DNA of 64,000 nt from Henricia sp. BOLD:AAB3569. Its lineage: Eukaryota > Echinodermata > Asteroidea > Spinulosida > Echinasteridae. Made by a program: the position numbers and the translations under genes. The stretch is taken from contig JBBELK010000453.1 of assembly GCA_037783545.1 (NCBI GenBank), forward strand, positions 620,001 to 684,000, read 5' to 3'. The stretch's first letter is position 1; the number at the start of each line of letters is the position of its first letter. This document shows, piece by piece, positions 317 to 30,350 of this stretch. The notes beneath the pieces are model-generated. The model had not been told where the DNA came from and did no database searches. It worked only from the letters and a program-made list of their open reading frames with translations.

Positions 317-389
317 CTCCAGTCAAATTGTGTACATCAGTGATGCTGCAGGCAATGTGATTGCTGTCAAGTTTTGGGGTGGCCTACAG
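317..389 (+). CDS. BRCA2: BRCA2 coding exon, OB3 fold (third from last)
   Basis: The exon follows a TTTCAG acceptor ending at 316 and stops at CTACAG|GTGGGT. It takes one base to complete a split codon, then encodes 24 residues including VYISDAAGN, AVKFWGGL and a final Q, so the downstream intron is phase 0. The upstream exon is not visible in bases 1-316. Confidence 0.85.
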
Positions 390-3300
390 GTGGGTACAGT
401 TGTCATAATTTTCTCGATCGGGCCTTGAAACAAGGGACACAAAATCTTACATGGACCACTGGATGCAAATTTGGAAAACACACCCCAAAAAAATTAAACA
501 TGGGATGAGAGAAAAACATTTATAAGCCTTATCAGGATTTGAACCCAAGACCGCTAACTCAACAGGCAGATGCTCTATCAGCTGAGCTATAAGGCACATT
601 GGTATACTTTCTCAGTTTTTCCCCACAAAGCCAATTTTTCCCTCGGTGCCTCAGCTGGTAGAGCATATGCCCAGTGAGTCAGAGGTCTTGGCCTCAAATC
701 CCAATAGTCTCATATGATTTTTTCTCTGTCATCCCATAATTGGTTGTTTCATTTCAATGGTGAATATGCATGATACCAAATAATGGCAACAGTGTATTGA
801 TACTTAGGTGATAAAATGCTACACGGTAATTATATAATATTGGATGGCTTTGAGGGTGATATGAGAATATACCGCACGAGTCATATACCGCACGAGCACA
901 CACGCGCAATCCATTCACTCGATGCATGACACGCGCATACGCATGTGCTTGGGTGCGCCCAGCGTGCACATGCATCAGATTGGGGCTCTGTGCTGCATAG
1001 TATCAGAAATGCATGGTATCCGCAAAATAATCACTTGTATAAAAAATACTAAATTGCTTGAGGATCACCTGCAAGATGGTTTTGTAATCTGTTTTCTTAC
1101 ATAAGGAATCAGTAACCATATACAGTTAACCTCAATAATAAGATCACTTTTAAATCAATATTCTGCTTATAGCAAGGAAACATTTTGGTCTCAATTCGTT
1201 CTTCATTAGTTTTATTCCCAGTAATACAAGGTTTCTGGTAATATGACAAGGAAATCTGCAAAGTCCCAGACCTCTTATCAATGGGATTTGACTGTTAAAA
1301 ATTATTAAAATTATGTATGAAATATCAGTAATTCTTTAGCAAATTTTGAATAGTAGGCCCTATATGGGTAATTCCCAAAATTAGGGGTCCAAAACCTTTG
1401 GTGTCCCAGTTACGTACGACACTGTCTGCTTCAAAAATCACCACTCATGATCACAAATTCCCAGTAATGGACTGTGGCCTGTGATTATAGGGGGCAGCAT
1501 CATTTTTCTCAATATTTTGTTCCCCGATTCCTGAAAAATATTGAAAACAAAAGACCATAAAGGCTTATAATTTGTTCCATGGTAGTGAATAGGAGTTTGG
1601 TGTCCCGGGTTACCTACGCCAATGAAAATTGGCTGTAGAATGAGTTTGCATTAATCTTGCTGCCATACCTACACACAAACATTAAATTTGAGTGGCATTT
1701 GTTGAAATAAATAAAAATATTTTCTACTGGGAAATCACTAAAAATACTTTGAAATCTTAAAAAGCATGTCACACTTTTGGACCCCTAATTTAGGGAATTA
1801 CCCATATGCTATTTCTATATATTTGTCTATTTGCAGGCCCACTGCTTGGAAAGCGTAGGGAAACAAGGAGTTATCCTCGCCTGCTCCAACCTACAGTGGA
1901 GGAGTAACAGCGCCTCGTCTAGCATCCCATGCCTACATGCTAGCGATGGAGTGTCTGTCACACAGAACCCCAAGGCTGGTTACCTGAGAAATGCTATGCA
2001 GGAATTACACAACCAAATTAAGGTAGGTTAAAGGTTATAATAATAATAATAATAATAGCAATCTTATATAGCGCCAAATGCCAGGACCTCTAGGCGCTTT
2101 ACAGTATAAACCAACCAAAGCGATAACATACATGTACATAGATAAATTTAAAAAAACAAATAAAAAAAATAAAACGTTAAAACCAAAGAGCATCATCAAG
2201 AGCATCAAGTCTGGTAATACTGAACAAAAAGATGTGTCTTAAGCTGGGACTTGAAATTACTGATAGAATGAATTTGAATGCATGATTGGTATCTCGAGGA
2301 ATCAGAAATGTTCACAGATTTACACATAACTTACACAATATAAACACGATGACGGTTGAAAACTGAATTAGAATGCATGATTGGACTTTTTGGTATCTCG
2401 AGGAATCAGAAATGTTCACAGATTTATGCATAACTTACACAATATAAACACGATGACGGTTGAAAACTTCCCCTGAAATGGTTTTGTCTGAAATGCTATA
2501 GTCTTTGAGAAATTAGCAAAACAATTATTTTTCGTCTCATGAGACGTAAATTAATTTCGCTTCAAAACCACTTTGCCCTGGACCACTTCGCCCTAAAGCA
2601 CTTCACCCAAAGGCCATTTCACCCCAAACCACTGAGTCGAAACACTACCTTGCCCAAAGGCCACTTTGCCCGAAAACAAAGTGGCGAAGTGGTTTTGGGG
2701 CAAAGTGACTGTAAACCATTTTGTGACTGTTTTCTTAAATGTTAGACGAAGTACGGAGCTGATTTTTGCTCAGGTTGGTTTTAATCATGCATACCTTCAA
2801 TCACACAGGGGGATAAAACTATTTGTAACAGTTTACCAATGTATAATATCTTTAATGATAAGAGTGGATTCACACTAAGCCTTTTTGCGAGATTTGACGC
2901 GTTGCTTTGAAAAAAGACAATGTGGAGGGAATTTGGAGTGAAACAAGGCTCTGAAAATCACAGAATCCAAAAAAAACACTTTCCTCCCAAGTTGATTTTG
3001 TAGTTTTCAGTGTGTCGTTTTACGCAAACAGGCTCAGTTTTATTCCACCCTGAAGGACTGTACGCATTGGACTTTTTTTGGGGGGGTGGGGGGCGGGAGG
3101 GGGTTGGGGGAACTTACCGAGACGATGGGTACTTTTCCCATTTTAAATCCAGTGCGGACAGCCCAGGAAGTTTTCCTCTCAGGAAGTTTTCCTCTCAGTA
3201 ACTTTTCCCTCTCAGTAACTTTTCCCTCTCAGTAACTTTTCCCGAGTCCAGCGGTTACTTTTTCTGGCCAACTGATAATCTTTCTTTTATTTGGTAAAAG

Positions 3301-5375
3301 CTGCTTGTATGTGGTCCTTTGTTTCCATGGAACTGAAAATGATTATTTTAGTGGGTTTTCTCTTGCAGAATCCCAAGACGTTTGCCCAGGATCTTGAAGC
3401 AAAGATTGCTGAAATGGTAGTATTGCAGACGAGATATTCAGTTCCCAGGACACCTAACCCAATTGGCATATCGCCAGTAGTGCCTTGGTCTGGTCCTAGA
3501 CCTATTGGAGAGAGCAACTTCGCACTTAATGTGACCCCAGAAGCCAGAAGTGGCATGTCGACAACTCCTGGAGCCCAAGCTACAAATCATAGTCCCCATT
3601 TATTACCGTCTTCACACAAGGCTAATCAATTGGGACCCCATGCTGTGGTATCACCCTTCCCAGCCGTATCACCTAGGGAGGGCGTGGCTGCCACACCAAG
3701 GGGCGGTGCTCCCTACAATTTACCCTCCACTCCAGCTTCAGATCGCCTTGCCAAAAAGCGACTTGACGCCCTTCGCCGTTACGACCTGCTATCCAGGACA
3801 CCCTCCCCACCCTCTTTTTCACCCCTCCCCACTTCTGTGTCAAACAGGGCAATGCGGAACTTCCGTCCCCCATCTTGTAGGAGGACCATTGTGCAACGGG
3901 GATCAAGTTCTCACGCAAAAAGTCCAAACATAGAAATCCGTGAGCCAGGGATTGAACACAGGTCCAGTGACGTCGCCAAAGTAGCTCAGCATTTTGGACA
4001 CCCTAACAGAGCTTCTCTGGTCACTCCTTTGAAACAAATAATCCACAATGCCTCCGTAACAGATCACAGCGGAGATGTCAGACCCCGGGCTGGCAACTCC
4101 CTGGAAGAAGAGATGACACCGAGCCAGCGTCAGGTGCAAGAGGTCCTGGGAATGTCCTACAAGAGTCTAGGAGAGATCGATTGGGAATGGACCCAGCAGG
4201 TAGATCCTCCATCCCCCGAAGCTCACGCAAGTGGCTCGCAGCCAAGTCCCAACTTTTCTTATGGCACTTCAAGCCAGTCTTCTTCATTAACAGATGAGGG
4301 TCTGAATGCAGCACCTCTCTCGTCAGATTTGAACAAAAATAATCTCAAACAGAACACAACTGATGGCAAATTTAGTGTAGACAAACAGGAGCACGGTGCT
4401 TCAACAGTGCTGACATCACATGGAAATGGGCAGGGCGTTTGCAGAGGGAAGAACGTGTCATCCAGTAAAAGAAAACTAGCTCGTAGAAAGAAGGGACACG
4501 TTGTTAGAAATCCTGCTGAGGTTTTGGATTCCATTCAGAAACAAGAATCACTGAAACCAAAGGAACATACACCTATGGGCAGGTGTGGTGACCAATGGAA
4601 AAATAAGCAGTGTGAGAGGATTGATGCAAGGAATCATCAGAAATGGCCGGGTCCTGATGGGGATAGTGAAAGGGTTCTGGAGAAGGTAGATGCATGTGTG
4701 AAGGGAACCAATGATGGTGGCAAAAGAACTGTGAAACGTAGGCGTGGAACCAGTGAAGCTGAAAGTGGAACTAATGAAACTGGACGTGGAACGAAGGAAA
4801 CTGGACTTGGAACGAAGGAAACTGGACTTGGAACTAAGGAAACTGAACTTGGAACTAAGGAAGCTGGATTTGGAACCGAGGAAACTGGACTTGGAACGGA
4901 GGAAGATGGCCTTAGAACTAAGGAAGCCGAACTTGGAACTAAAGAAGCCGAACTTCAAATTAAGAAACCTGGACTTGAAACTGAGAAAACTAGACTTGGA
5001 ACCAAGGAAGCCGAAGAAGGGATAGATGTAACCAATAAAGTTGTGGCAAAAACTGAGGAATGTGCAAAAGGAACTGAAGAACTCTTGCGTGGAACCAAAG
5101 AAGCTTTGGGTTCATCCAGTGATGCCATTTATGCAGCCAAGAGTTCTTGCGATGGAATCATAAAAGATGGAACCAGTGAACCTCTACAACTCCAGAATAA
5201 GGTACAAGCTTCTGAAACTGGAGTTTCCAGGCCAGGAAAAAGAAAGCGGAAGGCACGATCGAGGGTGGACCTCTCCATCTTGGAGCAGGGTTACCTATTG
5301 GGTGATGTAGTGGGAGAGCAGGCAAGGAGAGTCACTAGATCAGCTACCAGGCGGTCTGCATCAGAGGGAGTCTAA
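317..5375 (+). CDS. BRCA2: BRCA2 orthologue, 3' part of gene (last three exons, 5' end outside window)
   Basis: BRCA2 loads RAD51 on single-stranded DNA in homologous recombination in the nucleus. Three exons join in frame: 317-389, 1837-2022 and 3369-5375, all with AG/GT borders, giving 754 whole codons before the TAA at 5373. Exon 1 seen here encodes the OB3 strands VYISDAAGN and AVKFWGGL; exon 2 has ACSNLQWRS, matching the vertebrate AASNLQWRP block of OB3. The final exon has KKRLDALRRYDLLSRTPSPP and AMRNFRPPSC (counterparts of the KKRRALDFLSRLPLPPP and AFQPPRSC blocks), then TPLKQI near exon residue 219, placed like the TPFKKF of the human C-terminal RAD51-binding segment. Both visible introns are phase 0, as I recall for the last two human BRCA2 introns. 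Basic clusters (KRKLARRKKG, KRKRKARSR) could be nuclear localisation signals. The tail with 13 heptads is not found in human BRCA2. The DNA-binding helical domain, OB1, OB2 and BRC repeats must lie upstream. Confidence 0.9.
490..600 (-). mobile_element. tRNA-derived SINE (minus strand)
   Basis: On the minus strand there is a tRNA-like head with A box TAGCTCAGCTGATAGAGC (about 574-591) and B box GGTTCAAATCC (about 536-547), followed by the tail motif TTTCTCTCATCCCATG. The acceptor stem does not pair, so this is a SINE and not a functional tRNA. Confidence 0.75.
640..780 (+). mobile_element. tRNA-derived SINE (plus strand)
   Basis: The A-box-like CTCAGCTGGTAGAGC is at about 650-664, with a decayed B box near 690. 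The tail TTTTCTCTGTCATCCCATAA and GGTTGTTTCATTTCAATGG match the SINEs at 7.0-8.1 kb. Together with the minus-strand copy just upstream it forms a head-to-head pair. Confidence 0.7.
1362..1806. mobile_element. MITE-A, 445 bp, 33-bp terminal inverted repeats
   Basis: The left end ATATGGGTAATTCCC plus ATTAGGGGTCC is mirrored at 1774-1806 by GGACCCCTAAT and GGGAATTACCCATAT. A second copy of the family lies at 57318-57816. Internal DNA is non-coding and the flanks suggest a TA target. It sits inside the BRCA2 intron. Confidence 0.85.
1837..2022 (+). CDS. BRCA2: BRCA2 coding exon, OB3 end (penultimate)
   Basis: The acceptor TTTGCAG ends at 1836 and the donor is AAG|GTAGGT at 2023. The exon has 62 complete codons, with ILACSNLQWRS and a KAGYLRNAMQEL stretch that parallels the vertebrate KEGHFQETFNKM segment. 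Human exon 26, from memory 147 nt and phase 0 at both ends, is the counterpart; this one is 186 nt with the same phases. A MITE ends only 30 nt before the acceptor. Confidence 0.88.
2036..2125. repeat. (ATA)n microsatellite plus dispersed GCGCC repeat
   Basis: ATA units are followed by CTTATATAGCGCC and CTAGGCGCTTTACAG. The inverted GCGCC/GGCGC arms give a small hairpin. I recall this motif as a common dispersed repeat or SINE tail in echinoderm-type genomes. Confidence 0.5.
2265..2470 (+). repeat. Approximately 90-bp tandem duplication
   Basis: The stretch from TGCATGATTGG through CGATGACGGTTGAAAACT occurs twice in a row with few changes, one copy carrying a short insertion (ACTTTT). Confidence 0.8.
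2562..2712. repeat. CCACTTCGCCC-type short tandem array with inverted end
   Basis: Degenerate 11-12-bp units such as CCACTTTGCCC, CCACTTCGCCC and CACTTCACCC repeat about eight times. They are then followed by the reverse complement (GGCGAAGTGGTTTTGGGGC), so the array can fold back. Confidence 0.7.
3165..3245 (+). repeat. 17-bp tandem repeat
   Basis: Units of the type CTCTCAGTAACTTTTCC and CTCTCAGGAAGTTTTCC occur about five times in a row, about 125 bp before the BRCA2 final-exon acceptor. Confidence 0.8.
3369..5375 (+). CDS. BRCA2: BRCA2 last exon: C-terminal domain and repeat tail
   Basis: The acceptor CTCTTGCAG ends at 3368; reading starts NPKTFAQDLEAKI and runs 668 codons to TAA at 5373-5375. 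In order: residues 1-20, the end of the OB3 extension; about 129-170, the conserved KKRL...LLSRTPSPP...AMRNFRPPSC region; about 205-265, a segment with TPLKQI and EEMTPSQRQVQEVLG placed like the RAD51-filament-binding TR2 region; about 367-376, the basic KRKLARRKKG; 460-550, 13 heptads of consensus GTKETGL; about 624-632, the basic KRKRKARSR near the end. The first 26 codons of the longer open frame beginning at 3291 belong to the intron. Confidence 0.88.
   Translation, partial: NPKTFAQDLEAKIAEMVVLQTRYSVPRTPNPIGISPVVPWSGPRPIGESNFALNVTPEARSGMSTTPGAQATNHSPHLLPSSHKANQLGPHAVVSPFPAVSPREGVAATPRGGAPYNLPSTPASDRLAKKRLDALRRYDLLSRTPSPPSFSPLPTSVSNRAMRNFRPPSCRRTIVQRGSSSHAKSPNIEIREPGIEHRSSDVAKVAQHFGHPNRASLVTPLKQIIHNASVTDHSGDVRPRAGNSLEEEMTPSQRQVQEVLGMSYKSLGEIDWEWTQQVDPPSPEAHASGSQPSPNFSYGTSSQSSSLTDEGLNAAPLSSDLNKNNLKQNTTDGKFSVDKQEHGASTVLTSHGNGQGVCRGKNVSSSKRKLARRKKGHVVRNPAEVLDSIQKQESLKPKEHTPMGRCGDQWKNKQCERIDARNHQKWPGPDGDSERVLEKVDACVKGTNDGGKRTVKRRRGTSEAESGTNETGRGTKETGLGTKETGLGTKETELGTKEAGFGTEETGLGTEEDGLRTKEAELGTKEAELQIKKPGLETEKTRLGTKEAEEGIDVTNKVVAKTEECAKGTEELLRGTKEALGSSSDAIYAAKSSCDGIIKDGTSEPLQLQNKVQASETGVSRPGKRKRKARSRVDLSILEQGYLLGDVVGEQARRVTRSATRRSASEGV
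4746..5018 (+). repeat. In-frame 21-bp minisatellite coding 13 heptads in BRCA2
   Basis: Thirteen consecutive 21-bp units encode heptads of consensus G-T-K-E-[TA]-[GE]-L. The first four are GTSEAES, GTNETGR, GTKETGL and GTKETGL; the later units drift (QIKKPGL, ETEKTRL). The frame stays open across all units. High Glu/Lys/Thr content and leucine at every seventh position in the middle units allow a helical or disordered charged linker. The function is unknown. Confidence 0.9.
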
Positions 5376-6283
5376 GATAAGCAGTTTCAGGGCTGTAGTT
5401 GAGTCCACACTTTCTGAGTCCAAGTCCGAGTCCTTGGTATATGAGTCTAAGTCCGTGTTTGACTCTGGCTGGGCACCAGAGTCCTGAGCAGTCCGAGTCT
5501 AAAGTCCTTGCTGGTTTCAATCCTAGGTGCATTAATGTCAAGTGTCGGTGATCTTGCCTATGATCTCTGGCATCTTGTAAGTTTGCATTAGGCCAAGAAA
5601 AATATTTCTTTGGCAGGTAAAATACATCTGGAGTGCTCAACTTTTCAAGTGGTTGAAATTTCACATTCTCAATATTTCATTTCGCATAGATTTGAAATAT
5701 TTTTGGGCCCAAACAATTTGTAATAGGCGTTTGAAATACTTTCCTGGCACTCGTATTACGAGTGGTATACTTTTTTGTCAAGTGTATCTTAATGTATGGA
5801 ATGTATGGAAGGACTCTACCTTAATTACCGAATCCTTACTGCCCGAGTCGAAATCCTGACTGGGCGAGTTATTCAAAATCAGGACTCGAGTCCTACAGCG
5901 CTGATCAGTTTTCAAAGTGCCCAACTCCTTCATCCACCAAGATGTTTTATGATAAAGCATATGGTCGTAACTCAAAATTTCTGTCATTTAGTGCAATTTG
6001 AGTTATGACTTATTTGTTGCAGTACTGACGCGATGAAATATAAACTGGTGCAAGAACCTGAAATAGCCCCTATTCATGCTTCAGAACGGTTCAATCAGAA
6101 CGGAAACAGTTCTATAGAAGGCAATCAACCGATTGGAAAGGTGCAAGTTACATGTACAAATGCATTCTAAATCTCGCTCTGAAAACTAGGATTGGAAGCA
6201 TATTTTCTGGCAGCTTTACCAGTCAACAGTTTGGACTTGTAGAACTGATTCAGGAGGCCCAATTGAACTGTTTTAACATGCGA
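5376..6283 (+). other. BRCA2 3' flank / probable 3' UTR
   Basis: There is no clear AATAAA close to the stop codon; the first convincing one is near 6857. Stretches 5395-5515 and 5820-5900 contain repeated GAGTCC/AAGTCC words, a degenerate simple repeat. No coding signal is seen. Confidence 0.4.
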
Positions 6284-6330
6284 GTAGACCCTTTGCATCG
6301 GCGGGCATGGTAGAGGGCAGGTTTTTGTCA
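6284..6330. mobile_element. MITE-B solo half
   Basis: TAGACCCTTTGCA...GGCGGGCATGGTAGAGGGCAG matches one terminus of the MITE-B family (complete copies at 15862, 21716, 29761, 33122 and 37818). The other arm is absent. Confidence 0.65.
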
Positions 6331-7021
6331 TGGCTAGCAGGGGCGTAGGCTGGGGGTGTGGAGGCACCCCTGCCAGCATTATGAAGTTCCCTTCCGTTTT
6401 TATTTTTATTGTTTGTTGTGGTCATGATACCTGCAAGTGATGAATCTCTGCTGTTGTCGAACATGAATGTCTGAGCCAAATTGAAGAAAAAATCGAGGTG
6501 GGGTGAAAAGGGGCATAGGGTAGCAGTCTTTTTCTTTCTTTCTTTAAATTAAACCGTCAAGTCGCCAATGTTTGCTTATATGACAAGTTATTCTGGTGAT
6601 TGAACTGAAAATGTTTTGAGATATCCCTGCTCTATTCCATTGTCGGTTAGATTAATCTTTGTCATGGAATCGGTTCTGTTGGGTCCGGAAAGGCAAGTAA
6701 GTTTGTATGAGACTGCCCGTGTGAAGCTAGCCCCGTGCACTTTCGGTGGAATGGAGGCTCTTTGCTTCATTTGTGCAATTCTCATTTGCACAAGGAAATT
6801 TTATTTGTGAAGATTTTAAAAACTGACAAAGTTTATTTGAAAGTATTAAACCCAAATAAAATCTGTTTCCGACTTTGGTTCTTTTATAGCGATTTTGTAG
6901 TTGGTTTTTGTGCTACATTCCTTCCGCCACTCCCCCTCCCCCCAGGTGCGGAAGGACTAAACAAAGTGAGAAAATCAGACTTGTCATCGTCCAATCGTAC
7001 AACTTTGTGAGATTGGACTGA
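6331..7021. other. Non-coding interval
   Basis: I see no gene. The stretch is AT-rich, with a TTTC microsatellite near 6531-6545 and an AATAAA at about 6857 that could serve BRCA2 or an unrelated transcript. Confidence 0.4.
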
Positions 7022-7207
7022 ACGCAACATCTGGTATGGTGCCTAATCACCATTGAAATGAAGCAACCAAACTTGGGATGAGAGAAAAATCATAAGGGCC
7101 CTATCGGGATTCGAACCCAAGACCTCTGGTTGTTTCATCGCAGTGGTGATCAGGCACCATACCAGATGTTGCGCTCGTTACGTTGCCCAGTTGCGCTACC
7201 ATGCAAC
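7022..7207 (-). mobile_element. tRNA-derived SINE (minus strand)
   Basis: On the minus strand the A box TAGCGCAACTGG (about 7187-7198) and B box GGGTTCGAATCCCG (about 7107-7120) are well kept. The tail TTTTTCTCTCATCCCAAG follows. The 3' body (CATCTGGTATGGTGCC) reappears inverted at 7022-7060. Confidence 0.75.
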
Positions 7208-7242
7208 ACCGAGAGAAAATTGGGTCCATAAAGAAAACCTGC

Positions 7243-7352
7243 TTTATAGTTCAGTTGGCAGAGCATATGTCCGGTGAGTCAGAGGTCTCGGATTCGAACC
7301 CTGATAAGGCCTTTTACGAATTTTTCTCTCATCCCAAGTTTGGTTGTGATTA
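7243..7352 (+). mobile_element. tRNA-derived SINE (plus strand)
   Basis: The A box TAGTTCAGTTGGCAGAGC (7246-7263) and B box GGATTCGAACCC (7290-7301) are followed by GATAAGGCC and the tail TTTTTCTCTCATCCCAAG. It is paired head to head with the preceding minus-strand copy. Confidence 0.8.
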
Positions 7353-7811
7353 GACTGATACTGTTTTGGGGCGACAGCTAGACCTAAGAAATTGGACCCA
7401 ATAAGCCATATATTAATGACATCACAATTTGCTCAAATAATGCACTTTTTGGGGAGCTACGAAACCGTCTGGCTCTTTGAGGCATTCATAGAAAATGTCG
7501 CTCGTAAACACAATGATGTCATTATTATTATTCAGGCTACCAAAAGGTAGGCATGGGACCCAATACAATTTATGGAAAGTATAGAAATCGTTGATTTTCG
7601 GCATAACATGACGAAATGGATTAAATTACATCAAAATGACTCGGGTATGCGTTTGCTGAACGCAACAGCCGCCTTACTTCACAGATTTGCGTGGATTTCC
7701 TCGGGGCATTGTAACGTCTTTTAGCAGAGTGGAAATTCCCTGAGACCTCGGGATGATTTGGAGATGACTCCAAAATATCGCTGAATGTTGTGCACGGAAA
7801 CTGCCAAATAT
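7353..7811. other. Non-coding interval
   Basis: I see no exon, RNA gene or named repeat here. A short (ATT)n lies near 7519-7532. Confidence 0.4.
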
Positions 7812-7910
7812 AGCTTGAGAGAAAAAGTATTGTCCGCACCGGGATTTGAACCAGAGACCTCTGGCACAGTAGACTGTTGCTGTACCAGCTGAACTCTCGT
7901 TAAAGAACCT
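7812..7910 (-). mobile_element. tRNA-derived SINE (minus strand)
   Basis: The minus strand has an A-box-like AGTTCAGCTGGTACAGC and a B box GGTTCAAATCCCGG (7841-7854), with the family tail TTTTTCTCTCAAGC at the left end. Confidence 0.7.
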
Positions 7911-7998
7911 ATTTTTTCCCTCGATCTTGCATGCAGCGTGCGCAACTCGTAGACGTAACGAATTATGTAATATTTTGATATGGCGCCTTATCTTTATA

Positions 7999-8080
7999 GA
8001 AATGGAATAACCAAATGTGGGTGGAGAGAAAAATATTATTTATGGTCATCGGGATTTGAACCCGATACCTCTGAGTTACC
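7999..8080 (-). mobile_element. Truncated tRNA-derived SINE (minus strand)
   Basis: The B box GGGTTCAAATCCCG (8049-8062) and the tail TTTTTCTCTCCACCCAC are present. The A-box side is not recognisable. Confidence 0.6.
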
Positions 8081-9485
8081 AGAAACTACGCGATGGTGAC
8101 GGTACCTTTGGTAGGGGTCTCAACGCCCCAGCAGATTTGGCCGAGCAGATTTGCGCAATGAATGCACTAACTTTCTTTAATTGTTTTAAACGGTGTGTGT
8201 TCCAGTCCCGGTTGCATACATGGTGTGTTTGCCCTGGGGCACGGCACTTTGCCATAAGTTGCTAATTCTCTCCACCCCATGGCCCATGCAGGAGTAAACG
8301 GATACCTGCGAGTGTTGTAGCCCCTGAACACTTGTATCAGGCCGCCGGGCCTGCGTACTCCCCAGAGAGTTGTAAAACGGCATGAGTACCTCGCAGATAT
8401 AAATATAACTTATTCTGAAAACGCTACGCATGTGTGTTATGTGGAGCTTCAAAACTCAATCTCGTCAGTAATCAGTTCTAGTCAGTTCTTTGTCTAGCTG
8501 TGTACTTACTGAATTTAGTAGTAAATTCTGCGCAGTGCTCCGTGCCGTAACATCAACTCTTCACCGCCTATTTTCAGCTCGTCTTTTTTTTATTAAAACA
8601 ATAAATTTCGCCAAAACTATTGACTACACGGAAACACAAACATCTGTTGCTCACATGTTTTAGTTCTGAACTTTCACTGTGAAAAAAAAACTGGCAGGGT
8701 AGGCCTAAATCTAATTATCGACGGATGAGTGAGGAGGGAAGAAAAAATGAAGTTTGTATTTTTCCTCGGAGACCACTAAAATTTCCTAAATAGTCCGAGA
8801 GCCGAGTATTAGTGCCTTTGTGTCCCGGTCACCGTTGCCCATAAACCGTTCCGGGCAGTTACAGCGCACGGGGCCTTCTCGGAGGGGTGGTACGGAGCCG
8901 TGGGCCTTGCAGAGAAATTGGTTTCTTCCGCTGTTGAGGTCGAACAGGCGTAGCCAGTAATTACATCTCTCGTTAAACTATACTGATCATGGGCAATTTA
9001 AGTCCTGTGTTTTGTGCTCTCTTCTGCCGATTGGCAGCCCCTATGTGTTCATTTTCATAAAACTCCTTTAACTCCTAATCTCCCTAAATACCATTCACTA
9101 CCGTAGACGTTTAAAAAGAACCAAGGACATGGGATTGAGGCTTCTGCCCTATGTCAAATTTCGTTACGCATTTCAGTCGTAATTGACCGAAGTGTTTTTT
9201 CAACAGGTGCAGTATTATTGTAGCATAATCACAGACCCGGGGCTAGTTAGTTATTCTCCCAAAGGCCAGGGTTCTTGTTTTATGTAGTTTTAATAAAGCC
9301 TGATATTTTATCTTTTAAATGGCGTGTTAAATTAGAGGCTTGTGTTCGAGTCACAAATTTTCACTTGCTTTGTTTCTGTAATGCATTAGTATAGTGGGAA
9401 TGGGAATTTCGCACAACGATGTGCTGTTCTCTGTAGTGCATTTCACATGCAATCTCGGTGCACTTTACACTATTACCCCTGGCCA
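8081..9485. other. Non-coding interval
   Basis: No gene is recognised. The piece 8185-8400 (GGGGCACGGCAC; CCGCCGGGCCTGCGTACTCC) has the look of a decayed SINE or other dispersed repeat but has no clear promoter boxes. Confidence 0.4.
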
Positions 9486-9497
9486 TTGGGCTCAATG

Positions 9498-9590
9498 ATT
9501 GACAAATTTCAAATTAACACTGACAGCCTCGTTTCAGATGCTGAGCCATTGTATTACATCACACGTCTTTTCATTTGCAAATTTTATCAC
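9498..9590 (+). repeat. Dispersed repeat, partner at 49938-50024
   Basis: ATTGACAAATT, CAGCCTCGTTT, AGATGCTG and CGTCTTTTCA occur in the same order and spacing at 49.94 kb, in the same orientation. Confidence 0.7.
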
Positions 9591-9932: not shown

Positions 9933-9935
9933 TTA

Positions 9936-16864: not shown

Positions 16865-16878
16865 TTTTCATATAAAAT

Positions 16879-21045: not shown

Positions 21046-21487
21046 TTCATCTGCAAATGATATAATTGCCTTTTATTTGGCACGCAGTTGTTTAAACAAA
21101 ATCGATAAAATTTCCGCTGGTCCGCGTATTGGTCGCAGCGCTCTGGCCGGCGGGCCGGCCGCGTCCGGGCGATGATCGACGCGTTGTTTCGCCATGATTT
21201 CGCGTAGACCATTCAAAGGGTCAGTTTTCACCGAAGGGTTTCTTTTGTGTATAGAAATCACACCGTGATTTGACTGAGAGTGGCCCGTGTCTTTAATTGC
21301 AACTAATGGCGATGATTGTAATACTGAATATATCTGACGTCACTTGGCTTGAATGTTTTGGTGGATGATTTCATTTGATTGCAGCTAACCATGAGATAAA
21401 CGCGGTTTGAGCAAAACAAGTGTGAAACGATGCATGTCAACCCGGGCGGTCTCGGGGTTTGCCCCGGGTAGAGTTTAACCCGGGTTG
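21046..21487. other. Non-coding interval
   Basis: Locally GC-rich around 21120-21180 (GGCCGGCGGGCCGGCCGCG). CCCGGG words near 21440-21485 give a small inverted repeat. No gene is seen. Confidence 0.4.
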
Positions 21488-21715
21488 TGAGGTTGTAGTG
21501 TGAAAAAGGCCTTTTGTGCCTTACAGTCCAAGATAGATTACAGAATTGGAAAACTGTTACAAATGGTGTTATCTCCATGTGTGATTGAAGATGTGTATGA
21601 TAAAACAAACCCGTGTGTAAGCCAGCTCATCTACGTTACTTCCGAGAAAACAAAGAAAAACCGTGTCTGTACTTTCAGTGCGAAGCCACCGTCCTGTTTA
21701 GGCTGGTTCCCTGGC
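21488..21715 (+). repeat. Dispersed repeat family (also 2728, 23853, 59690)
   Basis: GGAAAACTGTTACAAATGG, ATCTCCATGTGTGATTG and TAGGCTGGTTCCCT occur here and, with divergence, at 2728-2870, 23853-24000 and 59690-59890. The 2728 and 59690 copies are on the opposite strand. Confidence 0.75.
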
Positions 21716-21864
21716 TATAGAGCGTCTGCACCGGCGGCCATGACAGGGGGCAGGTTTTCTTATGTAAACGATGTAACAATAGAACCACAAAGCACCTACC
21801 CATGCACGACGCACAGTGACAATGTGACTGCCCCCTGTCATGGCCGCCGTGCAAAGGCTCTATA
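21716..21864. mobile_element. MITE-B complete copy (149 bp), TATA flanks
   Basis: TATA precedes GAGCGTCTGCACCGGCGGCC and follows GGCCGCCGTGCAAAGGCTC. The interior is almost identical to the 15862 copy. Confidence 0.9.
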
Positions 21865-23564
21865 CTACTCAGAAAACTAAGCCATAATACCACAATAGTT
21901 TGGGTCCGAGGTTTGTTTGTAAAAAGTACGTATGCACACGCATTTATATCAGTTCATCTTCAATTAGCGTTTTCTGATAAAAAGATATCATCTCGGGCGA
22001 TATCATTGCATTTGACAGTTGTAAGGTTTTGATGTCAAATGGTTGGTTAAAACTTTTAAGGAAATGCAAATCCTGCATAGGCCTATGGGTTTTAAACGTA
22101 GCACGTGGGTGGAGTGCGCCTGCAACGTTACCGTCTGCTGCATTTCGTATGCCTCAACCGAGTCCCTTTCAGAAATTATCACTGGTAATGCATCCGTTTG
22201 ATTTGGTTATCACTGTCTGCCACAGAAAATTCTTGCACACCGCTAAAAAAAAAAATTAAAAAAAATACTTTCGGAAAATATGTCCATGGCGAAATAGCCA
22301 GTTAGCACGTGATTTAGCTCGCTAAATGCTTATAGTTAAAAATGTGGTTTTATGAACTTTTAAAAGGAATGAACTTCAGTTTAAACTGGCAAACTGTCAT
22401 TATTCAGGGGATATTCACGCATGAACTCTTGGTACAAAATAATGTATCTGTGGATGATCTAGTTTTATAGTAGGGCCTACTGTTTCTTTCTCGTTTGTTG
22501 GACTGAATTAAGCTAAACCTCAAAAACAGAGGACTTTCTGAATAGTTCTTAGAATTTTTGTTGTATACTTCATGATATATCGTGTGTCTTCGTATTGATT
22601 AATGAAGCAGCATATGATCGTATTGTCAAATGATGGGAAACAAAAAATGTTGACGACGTAATGTAAGTTTAACTTGACAGGTGGTTGGTCGTTAAACCAA
22701 GGATTTGATGCGCCGTGGACGTTTTTGTTTGGCTGTCACGGGATAAGTGCATCGTGATTTCTTTTGGAGTGGGGAAGCTATCGTTCACTGTGCTAAATAT
22801 TGCCCCTGCTAAATTGAAACGCGCCCCCTTGACATTTCACCTCACGCATCTCAAGTGTCCTGCGGAACGACACATCAAAAGTTGTAAAACGAGCGCAGCG
22901 CCGGCGATGCATCCGTCGCCTTTCGTCCATGGCCAGATATGATCTGTCCCGTTTAATTGCCGCGACTTGCGATGTGACGAGGGGGTGAGGGACAGGGGGA
23001 CCCGTTGAAAAGATCCCAAGCTATGGCTGAAGTGGTCTTGAGTTATGACCACGCCGTATATAATACACATAACTCTGTCACTCAATAACAATGACCGGGC
23101 AGGCGATTTCTAGCGTGATCGTGACTTTACCGAGCCCCGTACCGCGCGGCCGGGGGCCCGGCACGGCGTGGCCACCGCGCGGAGCCCGGACCGGCATCTC
23201 ACCGTCCATCCATCCACTCATGCACCCACAATTCGTCCGTGTTTAGGGGAGCATGTGGTCATATACAGCACAGCCGGGAAGGCAAAACAACTTGAACAAA
23301 ACAGTTGTAAAGTGTATACGCCTCGGTATATACACGAACCACTCATGTTGGCCGGCTCATTTCCTTGTACGCGGCGAGATTCTAATTCGGCGAGCGATAT
23401 GGCGAGCTCTTGGCCGGGTTTGACCGGGCGTGTGCGTGCTCGATGATATGTGTGTATTACGCGCATTCATCCGTTTCTAAGTAAAAACCCTTCACTTATT
23501 TCAACAACAGCTAATAGATCGCAGCAAATATCAAAACAAAATCATTATCGCCTTCCGCATAAAA
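21865..23564. other. Non-coding interval, partly GC-rich
   Basis: 22680-23440 is richer in GC and CpG (for example 23130-23200, with GCGCGGCCGGGGGCCCGGC) and free of recognised repeats. Regulatory DNA or a CpG-rich promoter is possible. No exon is identified. Confidence 0.35.
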
Positions 23565-23840
23565 GGAACTTGTCCAGATTTTTTAAGAAAATGGATTTCG
23601 TATATACGTTCTAACCTAACAATGAAATACCTCCCTAAAACACTGTCCATGGGAAGACAAAAGGACATTTGCAATCTCAAATTTGGATGTGGAAGCAAAA
23701 AGGCTGGTGTAATCACTGCACCGCTTTATGTACCTGATAAAATAGTTTACAAGACATCGGTGGTTTTTGAAGATATCCTTAAAAATATACGGATTGAGAG
23801 CACGAAATTTCATAATAAAAAAGGAAAAATTATATCTTAA
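23565..23840 (+). repeat. Dispersed repeat, partner at 48700-48985
   Basis: AACTTGTCCAGATTTTT, ATGGATTTCGT, AAATACCTCCC and AATCACTGCACCGCTTTATG recur in order at 48.7 kb (+ strand). The short open frame in it is not conserved in the partner. Confidence 0.75.
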
Positions 23841-23852
23841 CACCCATGGGAA

Positions 23853-24000
23853 AAGTTAGATTACAGGATCGGAAAACAAACGGCGTTTTCTCCAAATGTG
23901 TGTGATAAAAACCAACCTGTGTGTAAGTCAGTTCAGTACCTCATCTATACTTTCAAGAAATTGTGCGAAACTACAGTCCTATTTTAGGCTGGTTCCCTAT
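23853..24000 (+). repeat. Dispersed repeat (21488 family)
   Basis: GGAAAACAAACGGCGTT, CTCCAAATGTGTGTGATA and TTTTAGGCTGGTTCCCTA follow the order of the 21488 copy. Confidence 0.65.
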
Positions 24001-24349
24001 AGCTATACTGCATGGAAAACGAAGCCATAACACATCAGAAGACAGGAACACAATTTCAGGGATTTATTTCTGTTATTTTTCTTTTACATTAAGAAATTCA
24101 ACTGAAGTACTAGGTGGTTTAAAAAAATGTGTACATGCAAATTTTGTCTGACCATTCACTTATAACACAAAAAAATCATGCATGGATATTAAAGATTTAG
24201 GAAGCATTGCTGCATCTGTAGCTGAAATTTCTGCTGGCTATGGTTTACCAGCATTCTTCTTCAGATGTGGTAGCCTGTGCCCCGTACTAAAGGAATCCGA
24301 AAGTTAGATTGCGCTCTCTCATAAAATGCTGTGCCGGGCGGTGCAACTG

Positions 24350-24488
24350 TTAAAGGCACAGGATCGTCAGCAATGCGCGCGCCAAATTCGTGCCACGAAA
24401 TACGCAGCTCCGTGTAGCAAAGGCATGGAGCTGCGTATTTCGTGGCACGAAATTGGCGCGCGCGCATCGCTGACGACTGTGCCTTTAA
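24350..24488. mobile_element. MITE-D copy 2, 139-bp palindrome
   Basis: TTAAAGGCACAGGATCGTCA is mirrored by CGTCAGCGATGCGC sequence on the right arm and ends CTGTGCCTTTAA. The central arms with ACGAAATACGCAGCTCC are paired. Confidence 0.9.
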
Positions 24489-26943
24489 TGTCTTGCTTAT
24501 TCATAATATAGAAAGGAGCAAGAACTAAACATGCGATAAATGTCTTGAAATCACTTGTAGCGTCTACAAATTACTGACTCGTGTGCATTTTAGACCGCAG
24601 CCACATCATTCGGACGCAAATACCACGAGTCAACACTGCCGACTAACCACAATTAGTCACAAGAGGGCAGTCCAACGATTTTGTTTGAGGTGTGCCACTT
24701 AACACACTTCAAAAACAACCTCTATTTTTGTTTTCTTCTCAAATGTCGAGATTTAATGATTTCCTGTGCTATGCCCACGCCTCATTAACTACATTGAGGC
24801 GGAAGATTTATATTTAAACCGACGTGTCCAGCTTGCGATTTAGCCGGGGGCCTTGGGGCCTAAACTACGGCTTTCCTCCCCTTTCCTGCCGGCGAATGAA
24901 GCAAAAACCTGAGGAGGTTTAGGGCTTGAGCTGAGGTCTGTGTTTGGGTGAACGCACTCTGCTGTTGGCTGACGCACGGAGTAGGCTTGTTTTGAGAAGA
25001 GATTTAAACAAGCCAAAGTAACCAAGTTTTGGTATCTAAAGACTGTGGAAACAACTCGTTGCCTTCCCCTTACGGCGTGATGATATAGCGGCGTGCCCGG
25101 CCGGGGCGCAGCTCGCCAGAGGCCCCGCACTGATTGCGGCTCCGCGCTGGTCCATCAGGGCGAAGATTGCCCCAAAACCTCCTTGACAATATCGTCAATC
25201 GACCGGTACTCAACCGCCCTGTCTCGCTCGGTACTACCACCGTGGACTCAGTGAACAGTCCGAGAAAAAAAAGAAAGAAAACCCCCGTCTTTGTTCCGTA
25301 TTTACTTATACTTCAGACGAAATAACCCCAATCCCTGCCCGCTTGTGTATACAAGAGAGAACTGGTGTTTCCCCAGTGCGTATTGAAGGGAAATTATACG
25401 GCCCCTCAGGCCTGATCGACCGTATTTACTCGGGTCTGAGCACAGTGGGCAGTGGCCAGTTTGCGGTCGAATCCACCCATTGACAGACCGCTCGGGGTTT
25501 GAGGCGATTTAAATCCGCGCGTATGGCAGTATTGATTGGAACTTGCTTAATCATGTCATTACGGATTTATCCCACTATTATTAGAATCCCAATCAAATTT
25601 CATTCGTTACAAATCACGGAGGGATTGATTTAGTGTATACGCGCACATGCACCAAGGCAAATCCATTCGTTTCTCCTGTGTAAGAGATCCTAAATGATTT
25701 TAGGAAATTTCTAGTTTAAAAAGTAAAGCGAAAAAGGAAAGGGTGAAAAGACAAATAAAAAAATCCAGTCGACAGATTTAAGCCTGTGGTTTATAGAAAC
25801 AACGATCGAGAGCTTGAAAATGTCAATTTTTTTAAACATTTAGCATCATCGTGAATACGCTGTTCATTCTTTACATTGTTTCGAACAATGTTCGTGAAAG
25901 TCCTAAAAACTATTGATGCTAGGATAGGGCGACAATTTGTGTGTAAAAAGGGTATATTAGGGCGACACGCTCAATCGGGCGACATTTTGGTGTCGCCCTA
26001 ATATACATATTTTTAAATCATTTTTTTAGGTCAAAAACATTTTTTTTTAAATCGAGAACCATTTTTATTAGGTCTAGAACTGTCTCTCTTATCTGTAACC
26101 ATCTTTGGAAGCTTTGGGTAGAAAAATAAGGTGTCGTTTTGAGTGATTCTTGCCGAAATTTCGGTGGTCCCCGGGGAGAGTCTTCCCGAAATGTCGCCCT
26201 ATTGCTGCATCCAGAGTTCTTTAAATTTAAGTTATTATTATTATTATTTTCACTATTATTATTATTATTATTAATTCTTTCTGGTATTGAAACCAAGGAT
26301 TTCTCGCAAGCCTGAAGAAACCTGTGAAGAAAAGACATATATATTAATGACTGTTGGGTTGTGTTGACAACAACACCAAACAAGAAACAAACCCCGGTCC
26401 GTTTCATTAACTTCGAATCATGACTATCCAATTATTGGGCGACTCAGCGGCTGTCTGCTATACCCATTCAACGGCGGATCATAAAAGAACGGCATTGGTC
26501 AATGCCTGGTCACTCACACCAGTCGCGTTGGCCGGAGCATTCCTTTTTTTCACGCCCTACCCCAATCCTCTTAATGGCCCCAGGGTCTCCCCCAAAGTCT
26601 TGCAAGTTGGCAACTAACGTGTGTGTTGTGTGTGCGTGCTGTGTAGTTTTTACGCTCTAAAAGTTAGCTCGCGTGGCCGGCACGCGCGCCACATAGCCAT
26701 CAATACCGCACGGATCACTGGCATGACATTACTTGCCGGGCTCTATCCGAACAATACAGTTGGGGTATCCGTTGAAGGAAAAAAAGGGGGAGAAATAAAG
26801 AAAGAAAGAGAATATGAAAGAAAAGAGGATTGGGATGGCAGTGGTGACGCAAAGGGAGGTGGGGAAGCATGGGAGCACGGGTCGTGATGTTTGCATAGTA
26901 ATGACTAGAATCACGGAGAAGATTTAGGCCCCGTATCGAGGGA
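24489..26943. other. Gsx upstream region, repeat-poor
   Basis: No coding exon is recognised. 24840-25560 is GC-rich and complex, a candidate for conserved regulatory DNA. A hairpin with TATATTAGGGCGACAC at 25951 and GTGTCGCCCTAATATA ending at 26007 stands out. A short (ATT)n tract lies at 26230-26275 and GA-rich DNA at 26780-26835. Confidence 0.4.
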
Positions 26944-27017
26944 GCTGATCGGCTAGCGGTACAATGTCACAGGGCCGAGTAAAGCACCCCTCCCCCCTCC
27001 CCCCTCATTCCGATTGG

Positions 27018-27041
27018 GGCTAGGTTGGTCCGAACCTAGCC
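27018..27041. promoter_or_regulatory. Inverted repeat in Gsx core promoter
   Basis: GGCTAGGTT, a 6-bp spacer, then AACCTAGCC: a perfect 9-bp dyad 31 bp upstream of the TATA box. An inverted CCAAT-like ATTGGGG (27013-27019) abuts it. It may bind a dimeric factor; no known site is assigned. Confidence 0.5.
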
Positions 27042-27071
27042 GAGTCAGGGTGGTGGTGGTTTGAGTGGGGG

Positions 27072-27079
27072 TATAAAAG
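27072..27079 (+). promoter_or_regulatory. Gsx TATA box
   Basis: TATAAAAG in a GC-rich context, 30 bp before an initiator-like CCAGTCT (A at 27102). There is no ATG between that start and the coding ATG at 27270, so the predicted 5' UTR is about 168 nt. Confidence 0.75.
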
Positions 27080-27269
27080 AGCGCCACTATTCGGCAGGGC
27101 CAGTCTATAGTCCTGCCAGCTCACTCACTTCAAAACACGATTCTTGCTGCGAGCTCGCTTATCAACCGCTGTCTATACAAGACGACACCTGAGGTGTCAT
27201 ACCAAGCACGCATTCAACAAGAACAGTTGCTTGTATTATTTTCAAACTATTACTTTTTAAAGAGGGATC

Positions 27270-27726
27270 ATGTCTCGCTCATTTTACGTGGACTCGCTGA
27301 TTTTGAACCAGCCGCCGGCCAGCGAGCGGGACCACCCCAGGACCCCTCCAACCATGCATCTCCGCACCAACGGGGATCCCAAGAACCTCCGATGTTACCA
27401 GACCCACGCGGACACTCTTCCCACCTGTCCCATCTGCGTGAGGGACCAGGCCCAAGCCACCTGCGGCCGGCTACCCGGGATGCCTCCGACGTCGGGAGTG
27501 ACCGTCTTCAAGTCTCCTCTAGCCGGGCTGCCGCCGACGCACTCCCCCAGCGAGCACCGTCTCTTGCCCACTAGATCGTACCTAGAGGCTTGCCGTGATC
27601 ATCATCTCCTCCCAGGCAGCCTCGGGCTGCCTCCCCCTCACAGTATGAGCCAACACATCCCACCGTCTTCACATGCATCGTTTCGACCGGCAATAGACCC
27701 AAGACGACTACAGTACCTGCCGATGG
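27270..27726 (+). CDS. Gsx: Gsx exon 1 coding part
   Basis: 152 codons plus one base. It carries the N-terminal SNAG-like peptide, the CPICV motif and the pre-homeodomain [10 protein letters not shown]. Reading through the donor would stop after two more codons. Confidence 0.95.
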
Positions 27727-30350
27727 GTAAGTAATCTCTTTACCTTTTTACAATATTGCATTTTGAAAACATCAGAAGGCCTAGCCTCCCTTCCTCAAAT
27801 AGCCCCAGTCCCATTATAGTTACGTGTATTATCAAATACTTGTTCATTCATTGTCTATGTATTTAATTTATAAAGCAGTTTTTGCTCGTATCAATTTCCT
27901 TACACACGTAGTCAATAAAGAAAGTCTTTACCGTGTCAAAAAGTCTTCTGCGCTTGACGCAAAGTAAGCGCTTCCATTGTATTGTATGCGAATTTGAATA
28001 CCAGTGGAGGCAAAACAAAATTGATGTCGATACTGGAGTGAATTTTGGTGCGGTTTTAGGGTAGCCATTTTAGGGTAGTCAGGGTCGAGAAAAATCAATG
28101 CATTCTTGAACGTGGGAAATAGCAGATGAGTACATTATCGAAGTCCAGGAGTCAGGTGCTTAGTTCCCAGGGTTCGACAAAAGCGGACGGGAAGTATATC
28201 TGGGAAAATGTCGGTTTCACCAGCCGTTTACACGGCAAGTATATAAGAGCCACATTGAACCATCCTGGACTTTAATCCTTATGCTTCTTTCCTCATTTTG
28301 GCTCGTTCCATGTTAAAAATTGTCGTTTAGAGATTATACGGACGAGCGAGTTTTTGTCTGGGCAACGGCCGGCGTGTGCAAGGCGGCAAATTTGTGCTCC
28401 ATCATCAATTTGGGAAAGAGTTGTTCAAGGTTTAAATAAATGGCCCAAAATGACATCAAGATAACCTTGATGACCCAGTTCCTTTGTCCCCCTCTCTCTC
28501 GACTCTTTCGGGATATTCCAGAAATTGCAGACAACTAATACATAATAGAAAATACTCGTAGAACTCTTATTTTAGTCATCCAAAATCACATTGAATACCA
28601 ATTGAGACCCGATCTCAAAGCACATCGAATTGTTGATGATACACATAAATCGTAGCGACTTTTATCGTTCTATTAACATCGTAATACTCCCCAAACAACA
28701 TAATTGGATTTTGGTTGTAGCTTTACAGTTATTTTGGCGAAATTAATGGGTTGGGAATTTGTAGGAAATGATTTTTGGGGCGTTCCAAGCAATACTACTT
28801 TTCCCCCAGACAATTATCTGCCCGTTGGACCTGCAGTGGCGTTGCCAGGCGTTTCAAAGTGGGGAGGGGGAAAATAAGTGGAACATTACTTTTGAGGGGA
28901 AAGGGAGGGGGAGGAGACACACTATTTTCCCAAGGATCTTAGAGCAATTTATAAATGCATTTACAAAAAAAACCATGCTGGGCTTCTTTTAATTTTGAAC
29001 ACCGCGTATTCAGCTTTCTATAAAAGCTTGAAAGTCGGGAAATAAAACAGGCGCGCACTTACATGATTGTAAAACCTTTAAAAACAGAAACAACAACATT
29101 ACACAACTAAAGAATAATATTGATAAACTGCCTTGTGGAAATGTCAGCCACATAGATGCAGTAATACTTCAGAAAACATTAAAAATCATGCGTGGTTTTT
29201 GTGTTTAATGAATGGTAAAAAACAAAATCGTTGGAAAACGATTTTTTAAAGCACTTCAATTGGAAATTTCTTCCACAAAGGTATACACGGGGAAAAGTCA
29301 TGCGGTGTTTGTTACCATCGCTATCGACACTCTTAGTCGGGTTTCTCTTGTGAACTTGTGAAGTAAAATTTGGAGTAACTGCAAATTATGTGATGGGGCT
29401 TTAATTGGGGTGGGGTGAGGGGGGGGGGGGGGGGGGAGTTTTTCATCCCTTTTAAGACATCGGCAACTTCCTTTTCCACAAGTGGTTGTTTCGATCTATA
29501 AATTGTACCTTTTCTTTGTTGATTTTTGTCTTGCTTCCTGAATCAGCTGCTGATATTTTTATGATCATGAATTCGCAGACATGGCTGTTCTGTGCTTGTT
29601 GTTTCTTTGTTATCGACAGTCGTTTTCATTGTTACTTGTTGTCATTGATGCTGTCGTCCCTGTTGTTGTCCCTGCTATATTGCCCATGCTATCATTGTTA
29701 TTGTTTGTTGTTTGTCGTCGTCGTCGTTGTTGTTGTTGTTGACGTTTTTCTTTATCACTATATAGTCTTTGCACGAGGGCCATCTTAGGAGACAATCACA
29801 TTGTCACTGTGCATCATGCATGAGTGCGCGCTTCTGGATCTATTGTCACATCGATTAAATATAAGAAAACCTCCACCACCCCCTAACATGGCCGCCGGTG
29901 CAAAGCGTCTATTCCAGTTTAAATTCGTTTCTGGGAAATTCACCAGGATCCCTTTGTGTTCTTGTTTCCACAGCACTGGACCATTCGGGAATGGACCAAG
30001 ACCACCTCTCCAGCAGCAAGCGTATCCGAACAGCATTCACCAGCACACAGCTCCTGGAGCTGGAGCGGGAGTTCGCCTCCAACATGTATCTGTCTCGTCT
30101 CCGCCGCATCGAGATCGCCACCTACCTAAACCTATCCGAAAAACAAGTCAAGATTTGGTTCCAGAACCGGCGGGTAAAGTACAAGAAGGAGACCAAAGTC
30201 CAGTCACGTGACTGCAAGTGCCAGCGCATGACGTCATCGCGGTCGAGCAATGGGAGCAGCGCCGGTGGGCGGAGCCACTCCTCGTCGCCAGGCAACTCTG
30301 CCCATGCGCCAGTTGACGAGGAGGACAAGAGGCCACAAGAGCACGATTGA
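27270..30350 (+). CDS. Gsx: Gsx (Gsh) ParaHox homeobox transcription factor
   Basis: A nuclear transcription factor of the anterior ParaHox class, known for patterning neural and anterior tissue. Two exons, 27270-27726 and 29974-30350, join in phase 1 (donor GG|GTAAGT, acceptor TTTCCACAG) into 277 residues. Residues 1-11 [11 protein letters not shown] match the SNAG-like N-terminal peptide typical of Gsx. CPICV at 53-57 corresponds to the vertebrate CPLCV motif. [10 protein letters not shown] at 143-152 parallels DPRQFHCISV. The homeodomain is residues 167-226 (nt 30015-30194), with [19 protein letters not shown] and [10 protein letters not shown]; Gln50 and Asn51 are present, and Tyr replaces the usual His at position 56. 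A short DCKC motif at 232-235 parallels vertebrate GCKC. The start has A at -3 and no upstream ATG. The length is close to vertebrate GSX1. The identity is very secure. Confidence 0.97.
29085..29400 (-). repeat. Dispersed repeat in Gsx intron (inverted copy of 20735)
   Basis: The minus strand reproduces the order of blocks at 20735-21045, for example TTACTGCATCTATGTGGCTG. Divergence suggests an old insertion. Confidence 0.8.
29418..29438 (+). repeat. Poly-G run
   Basis: Twenty or so consecutive guanines within a G-rich 35-bp stretch in the Gsx intron; it can form G-quadruplex structure and is prone to length error in assemblies. Confidence 0.85.
29707..29742 (+). repeat. GTC/GTT trinucleotide microsatellite
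   Basis: GTTTGTCGTCGTCGTCGTTG followed by GTT units, in the Gsx intron. Confidence 0.85.
29761..29912. mobile_element. MITE-B copy inside Gsx intron
   Basis: TATAGTCTTTGCACGAGGGC at the left; GGCCGCCGGTGCAAAGCGTC at the right. Internal TCACATTGTCACTGTGC and GATCTATTGTCACATC match the other copies. It is more diverged than the 21716 copy. Confidence 0.85.
29974..30350 (+). CDS. Gsx: Gsx exon 2 with homeodomain
   Basis: It begins with two bases completing an Ala codon, then [21 protein letters not shown] leads into the homeodomain (30015-30194). The tail is Ser/Gly-rich and ends in acidic/basic [10 protein letters not shown] before TGA. A longer open frame from 29898 is only intron read-through. 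Confidence 0.96.

What the first reader, a model, noticed from the sequence alone, without database searches (positions are those of the whole stretch)
317..30350. BRCA2 and Gsx are neighbours about 22 kb apart
The BRCA2 stop is at 5375 and the Gsx ATG is at 27270, same strand, with no other gene recognised between. In human, GSX1, PDX1, CDX2 and BRCA2 all lie on chromosome 13q12-13, several Mb apart. Tight linkage here suggests that BRCA2 flanked the anterior side of an ancestral ParaHox locus. That would give a useful anchor for ParaHox synteny in animals where the cluster has broken up.
Basis: partly seen in the sequence, partly recalled or inferred. Interest (0 to 1): 0.75.

Follow-up and report, generated by a model that had tools for sequence, protein, structure and literature searches.

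The report
BRCA2 beside an intact ParaHox cluster
In this sea-star-like animal genome the DNA-repair gene BRCA2 sits next to the developmental gene Gsx at one end of a complete ParaHox gene cluster; the two genes also share a chromosome region in mammals, so the linkage is probably old, but the direct side-by-side position is probably a local reshuffle.

Summary
Window 317-5375 is the 3' end of BRCA2 (+) and 27270-30350 is Gsx (+), 21.9 kb apart, with no gene found between. On the window's own contig (C453) more of BRCA2 lies upstream, and Xlox and Cdx lie downstream, so the ParaHox cluster is intact. Order: PAICS(-), PPAT(+), XPNPEP3(-), BRCA2(+), Gsx(+), Xlox(+), Cdx(-), RPS3(-), eIF5B(-). 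CHIC, the Gsx-side neighbour in amphioxus, is on the same contig but about 241 kb past Cdx. BRCA2, PPAT-PAICS and CHIC all map near ParaHox loci in mammals, so an old ParaHox linkage that includes BRCA2 is likely. An ancestral anterior (Gsx-side) position is not favoured: human BRCA2 lies on the CDX2 side (recalled), amphioxus and Platynereis have other genes beside Gsx, and CHIC has changed side here. CpG depletion over BRCA2 fades within about 2 kb of its stop, which argues against one regulatory unit. No other invertebrate genome could be searched, so the adjacency elsewhere is untested.

The parts
317..389 (+). BRCA2 exon, start of the OB3 domain region
   Evidence: In-frame splice sites; match to BRCA2 chains
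1837..2022 (+). BRCA2 exon, OB3 region
3369..5375 (+). BRCA2 last coding exon with TR2 domain and stop codon
   Evidence: Pfam BRCA2_TR2 E=4.5e-8 above cut-off; splice acceptor at 3367-3368
5376..27269 (.). Intergenic stretch without a recognisable gene; 24% resembles other places in the surrounding 304 kb
6500..7500 (.). Approximate place where CpG observed/expected rises: low over BRCA2 (mean 0.64), higher over the gap (0.92) and ParaHox block (0.85 to 1.05)
27270..27726 (+). Gsx exon 1 (begins [11 protein letters not shown])
   Evidence: donor GTAAGT at 27727
29974..30350 (+). Gsx exon 2 with the homeodomain and stop codon
   Evidence: Pfam Homeodomain; GS homeobox 2 best solved relative

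Best explanation
A real neighbourhood in an echinoderm-like genome: BRCA2 is the first gene found beyond Gsx at the Gsx end of an intact ParaHox cluster. BRCA2, the PPAT-PAICS pair and CHIC were already on the same chromosome segment as ParaHox in the deuterostome ancestor and have stayed linked, while gene order around (not inside) the cluster was reshuffled. The direct BRCA2-Gsx contact is therefore most likely a by-product of inherited linkage plus local rearrangement, not a functional pairing. Shown: gene identities, order, orientation and distances on this contig, and CHIC on the same contig. Inferred: the ancestral linkage, the rearrangement, and the lack of regulatory coupling.
For: Gene identities by Pfam, NCBIfam and solved-structure searches. 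Xlox homeodomain at C453:736538-736708(+) and Cdx homeodomain exons at 756783-756911(-) and 755936-755980(-). CHIC exons at C453:1005326-1005460 and 1006241-1006426 (-), the 2 matches of 10 scored candidates genome-wide; contig C453 is 1.66 of 740.7 Mb, so landing there by chance is about 0.2%. CHIC2 is in the human 4q12 amplicon, and PPAT and PAICS are listed with the larger amplicon of one tumour (PMC3460955, passages); the human cluster GSX1-PDX1-CDX2 is at 13q12.1 (PMC4471637, passages); Brca2 is listed among the genes surrounding the ParaHox cluster in gerbils (PMC10210625, passages). CpG rise just past BRCA2.
Against: URAD/PRHOXNB, the chordate Cdx-side neighbour, is not on C453 (3 of 3 matches on C52 and C32); none of 139 scored receptor-kinase matches is on C453, though 263 of 402 first-look candidates were not scored; XPNPEP3, RPS3 and eIF5B are not ParaHox neighbours in human (recalled). 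POMP/UMP1 and HPF1, the coral ParaHox flankers, gave no match, but the controls were silent too. Most human map positions are recalled. Only 304 kb of the 1.66 Mb contig was read, plus two overlapping 3-kb loci at CHIC.
Confidence: 0.68

Rival explanations
1. Ancestral micro-synteny: BRCA2 directly flanked Gsx in the deuterostome or ambulacrarian ancestor, and vertebrates and amphioxus lost the contact.
For: The adjacency exists here with the cluster intact, and BRCA2 is still linked to the cluster in mammals (PMC10210625, passages).
Against: Gsx-side neighbours differ in amphioxus (CHIC/SYCP1, PMC5803294 passages) and Platynereis (MatnL, Lamc, PMC2723086 passages); human BRCA2 is on the CDX2 side (recalled); CHIC has changed side here.
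Confidence: 0.17
2. Chance contact: BRCA2 arrived beside Gsx by a recent rearrangement and its mammalian linkage is coincidence.
For: Three of the identified neighbours (XPNPEP3, RPS3, eIF5B) have no ParaHox link in human (map positions recalled), and URAD is on other contigs.
Against: PPAT-PAICS and CHIC, two further independent ParaHox-region loci of human, are on the same contig.
Confidence: 0.1
3. Assembly join error between 5.4 and 27 kb.
For: Reads were not available; nothing positive for it was seen.
Against: No N; GC without a step across the gap; genes on both sides of the gap belong to ParaHox-linked regions in human (PPAT-PAICS and BRCA2 on one side, Gsx-Xlox-Cdx and CHIC on the other).
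Confidence: 0.04
4. Regulatory block: BRCA2 is held beside Gsx because it houses or borders ParaHox enhancers. This could hold together with either origin above, so the odds here need not sum to one.
For: The 22 kb gap has no recognisable gene, as expected of a regulatory flank.
Against: CpG depletion sets BRCA2 apart from the gap and cluster; BRCA2 is a housekeeping repair gene that is not adjacent to GSX1 in human (recalled).
Confidence: 0.06

Closest known systems
Sea star Patiria miniata ParaHox cluster (PMC3710244, passages)
   Same: Order Gsx-Xlox-Cdx, with Gsx and Xlox in one direction and Cdx reversed; a primer of its Gsx encodes RRVKYK as here; 4 of its 10 primers match at the expected gene with 1 or 2 mismatches.
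   Different: Larger here: about 117 kb from Gsx ATG to the Cdx first coding exon against 87 kb in all; Gsx-Xlox gap about 49 kb against 31 kb; Xlox-Cdx gap about 19 kb against 13 kb. The passages seen name no flanking gene, and BRCA does not occur in the text. 6 of 10 primers do not match at the expected gene.
Amphioxus ParaHox cluster (PMC5803294, PMC3698058, passages)
   Same: Intact cluster with CHIC linked to it.
   Different: CHIC lies beside Gsx in amphioxus; here it is about 241 kb beyond Cdx and BRCA2 is beside Gsx.
Hemichordate Ptychodera flava ParaHox cluster (PMC3698058, passages)
   Same: Intact cluster; PRHOXNB (URAD) not found next to it.
   Different: Flt1 next to Cdx there; RPS3 and eIF5B here. 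The 5' flank of Gsx in its BAC was too short to test for CHIC.
Human 13q12-13 and 4q12 ParaHox regions
   Same: GSX1-PDX1-CDX2 and BRCA2 on 13q; GSX2, CHIC2 and PPAT-PAICS on 4q12 (partly recalled).
   Different: Megabase spacing; BRCA2 on the CDX2 side (recalled).

Membership tests
BRCA2 gene | BRC repeats | tested here: met
   PF00634 E=2.9e-107, 9 stretches, C453:600001-604338
BRCA2 gene | DNA-binding region: helical domain and OB3 | tested here: met
   PF09169 at C453:609153 and 610655; OB3 region matches BRCA2 structures
Gsx gene | Gsx-type homeodomain, two exons | tested here: met
   no family tree was built
ParaHox cluster | Gsx, Xlox and Cdx linked in this order, Cdx reversed | tested here: met
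   Positions; Pfam names only homeodomain families, and the names Xlox and Cdx rest on homeodomain motifs read by eye
Chordate-type ParaHox neighbourhood | CHIC beside Gsx | tested here: not met
   No CHIC in C453:500001-804000; CHIC at C453:1005326-1006426
Chordate-type ParaHox neighbourhood | PRHOXNB/URAD beside Cdx | tested here: not met
   3 matches, on C52 and C32
Ancestral BRCA2-Gsx adjacency | Same adjacency in other invertebrates | not testable with these tools
   The collections offered hold prokaryotes, viruses, plasmids and metagenomes, and of named or whole animal genomes only G000; literature searches listed no such report

The most novel reading that the evidence does not exclude
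BRCA2, together with PPAT-PAICS, was an immediate Gsx-side neighbour of the ParaHox cluster in the ambulacrarian or deuterostome ancestor, adding named anchors for finding the ParaHox locus (or its ghost) in animals whose cluster is scattered.
Probability: 0.17. Interest if true: 0.6.

Novelty: new member of a known kind. Interest (0 to 1): 0.38.

Why it matters
It adds a named, ordered neighbourhood for an intact non-chordate ParaHox cluster. It supports BRCA2 and PPAT-PAICS as members of the old ParaHox linkage, and shows that CHIC can change sides, so single flanking genes are weak anchors while the gene set as a whole may be useful for locating ParaHox loci in sea urchins, brittle stars and other animals with broken clusters.

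Tried and rejected
CHIC by family PF10256: the one match (C454) reads as GOLGA7-like, not CHIC (read by eye); a recalled human CHIC2 then found CHIC on C453. POMP/UMP1 and HPF1 by family: no match, controls silent too, so uninformative. SRP72 (PF08492) and POMP by protein did not complete. A possible URAD-receptor kinase linkage on C52 (84 and 116-117 kb) was dropped: the kinase exons read by eye as a divergent receptor kinase and not clearly FLT-like. A search for ParaHox with PAICS or PPAT was uninformative: 236 papers hold two of the three terms, and the 8 listed hold no mention of ParaHox. The species was not identified: of 10 P. miniata primers, searched with up to 4 substitutions, 4 match at the expected gene (GsxQR1, GsxQF2, LoxQR2 with 1 mismatch, LoxQF2 with 2), 2 match only elsewhere with 4 mismatches, and 4 do not match.

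Full report
Observation. The window lies at G000:C453:620001-684000 of a 740.7 Mb, 2104-contig genome. Window 317-5375 holds three coding exons of BRCA2, the last with the stop: 317-389, 1837-2022 and 3369-5375, joined in phase 0 with GT-AG borders. The first 124 residues match BRCA2 of solved structures, 3 of 3 hits at E<=0.001, and the ORF of the last exon has the BRCA2_TR2 domain above its cut-off. More of the gene is upstream on the same contig: 9 BRC-repeat stretches in one ORF at C453:600001-604338 (in one search the open stretch starts earlier, at 599884) and the helical domain at 609153 and 610655, the only 2 matches reported in the genome. The 5' end was not defined. Gsx has two exons, 27270-27726 and 29974-30350; its closest solved relative is GS homeobox 2, 3.4e-32, ahead of an engrailed chain (2.4e-27) and PDX1 (1.8e-21). 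The gap of 21,894 bp has no recognisable gene: of 107 ORFs of 62 aa or more on both strands one has a Pfam match at E=0.0015, where about 0.16 such matches are expected by chance, and the internal-exon scan has no candidate above 8.4 in it (true exons score from 6.4 upwards in that scan, and it misses the Xlox homeodomain exon, so small or terminal exons could be missed).

Surroundings. I read C453:500001-804000. Exon by exon along the contig: PAICS(-) 544.9-551.8 kb (SAICAR_synt and AIRC above cut-off; 'Multifunctional protein ADE2' 3.2e-22), PPAT(+) 577.1-580.9 kb (purF, below the whole-protein cut-off as these are single exons; amidophosphoribosyltransferase 1.2e-26; of two exons given to Pfam one had no match and one a sub-threshold Pribosyltran match), XPNPEP3(-) 585.8-588.2 kb (AMP_N; 2.7e-10), BRCA2(+) about 592-625.4 kb, Gsx(+) 647.3-650.4, Xlox(+) first exon at about 699.0-699.7 and homeodomain at 736.5, Cdx(-) homeodomain at 755.9-756.9 and first coding exon at 763.6-764.1, RPS3(-) 772.6-776.6, eIF5B(-) with exons near 796 and 803 kb. 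An LTR-type element lies at about 563.8-569.7 kb and a gag-like frame at 782.6-784.4 kb (by eye). So the cluster is intact and has the orientation reported for the sea star Patiria miniata and other deuterostomes (PMC3710244, passages). Of 10 P. miniata primers 4 match at the expected gene with 1 or 2 mismatches and 6 do not. I take the genome to be an echinoderm, probably near sea stars; it was not identified.

Is the linkage old? CHIC is the Gsx-side neighbour in amphioxus (PMC5803294, passages). The contig is 0.2% of the assembly. CHIC2 is in the human 4q12 amplicon with PDGFRA, and PPAT and PAICS are listed with the larger amplicon of one tumour (PMC3460955, passages); GSX2 also lies there (recalled). 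Brca2 is listed among the genes surrounding ParaHox in gerbils (PMC10210625, passages). Three separate loci on this contig therefore point to mammalian ParaHox regions. Against: URAD is on other contigs (3 of 3 matches), none of 139 scored receptor-kinase matches is on C453 (402 candidates, 139 scored), and XPNPEP3, RPS3 and eIF5B lie elsewhere in human (recalled). The genes that flank ParaHox in corals, POMP and HPF1 (PMC6214176, passages), could not be placed.

Is the side old? Probably not. Human BRCA2 lies beyond CDX2 rather than beyond GSX1 (recalled). Amphioxus has CHIC and SYCP1 beside Gsx, Platynereis has Matrilin-like and Laminin-gamma (PMC2723086, passages), and here CHIC is on the Cdx side. 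Neighbours have been reshuffled around a stable cluster, as the hemichordate study also concluded for its animal (PMC3698058, passages). Within echinoderms the cluster itself is broken in sea urchins and a brittle star (PMC11310086, passages), so the region is not fixed.

Function. Mean CpG observed/expected in 1-kb windows is 0.64 over BRCA2 (33 windows), 0.92 in the gap (21), 0.85 over Gsx (3), 1.05 between Gsx and Xlox (48), 0.97 over Xlox (37), 1.00 between Xlox and Cdx (18) and 0.96 over Cdx (8); other stretches: 0.80 and 0.77 upstream of 582 kb, 0.60 at XPNPEP3, 0.84 and 0.83 around RPS3, 0.89 for 777-804 kb. BRCA2 against the gap from 627 kb on gives p=9e-7 by rank test, though neighbouring windows are not independent and single low windows occur inside the gap (0.30 at window 18 kb). 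The rise falls within about 2 kb of the BRCA2 stop. The likely reading, from what is known of mosaic methylation in invertebrates (recalled), is a germline-methylated BRCA2 unit next to an unmethylated developmental block. That argues against BRCA2 as a member of a ParaHox regulatory unit; it is an inference from sequence alone.

Literature. Searches for ParaHox with BRCA2 (7 papers) and Gsx with BRCA2 (15 papers) in the held library of open-licence papers listed no report of this adjacency in an invertebrate; I judged this from the listings and read passages in two of them, PMC10210625 and PMC6214176. Synonyms such as Gsh were not searched, and most subscription papers are not held; the ghost-loci study of ParaHox was seen only as a reference in other papers. 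Other papers named here were seen as passages only.

Verdict. A correct and careful observation; a real, intact ParaHox neighbourhood with BRCA2 as Gsx-side neighbour. Old linkage: likely. Ancestral anterior flank: untested and not favoured.

Noticed in passing
window 40001-44000: Block of GC about 0.50 with no match to repeats elsewhere in the surrounding 304 kb, between Gsx and Xlox; ORFs up to 145 aa and weak exon candidates up to 10.7, not tested for homology; perhaps a regulatory or non-coding transcript region.
   Followed up: partly
window 60944-63960: Arrays of 21-bp and 16-bp tandem repeats that occur in both orientations, with CpG observed/expected of 1.5 to 1.6 at 61-63 kb.
   Followed up: no
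window 524-596 (-): Rfam tRNA match of 39.2 bits inside a BRCA2 intron, not called by ARAGORN; perhaps a tRNA-derived SINE.
   Followed up: no
window 4744-5015: A 21-bp tandem repeat in frame in the last BRCA2 exon gives a run of GTKE(T/A)xL-like repeats of unknown role.
   Followed up: no
G000 contigs C116/C539, C69/C293, C465/C577, perhaps C52/C32: Pairs of contigs with equal or similar homeobox or URAD matches, so the assembly may hold both haplotypes for part of the genome; the BRCA2 helical domain and CHIC were each found at one place only.
   Followed up: no
L033-L034 (C453:500001-520000): Minus-strand frames that repeat a HYR-like domain pattern, upstream of PAICS; read by eye only.
   Followed up: no
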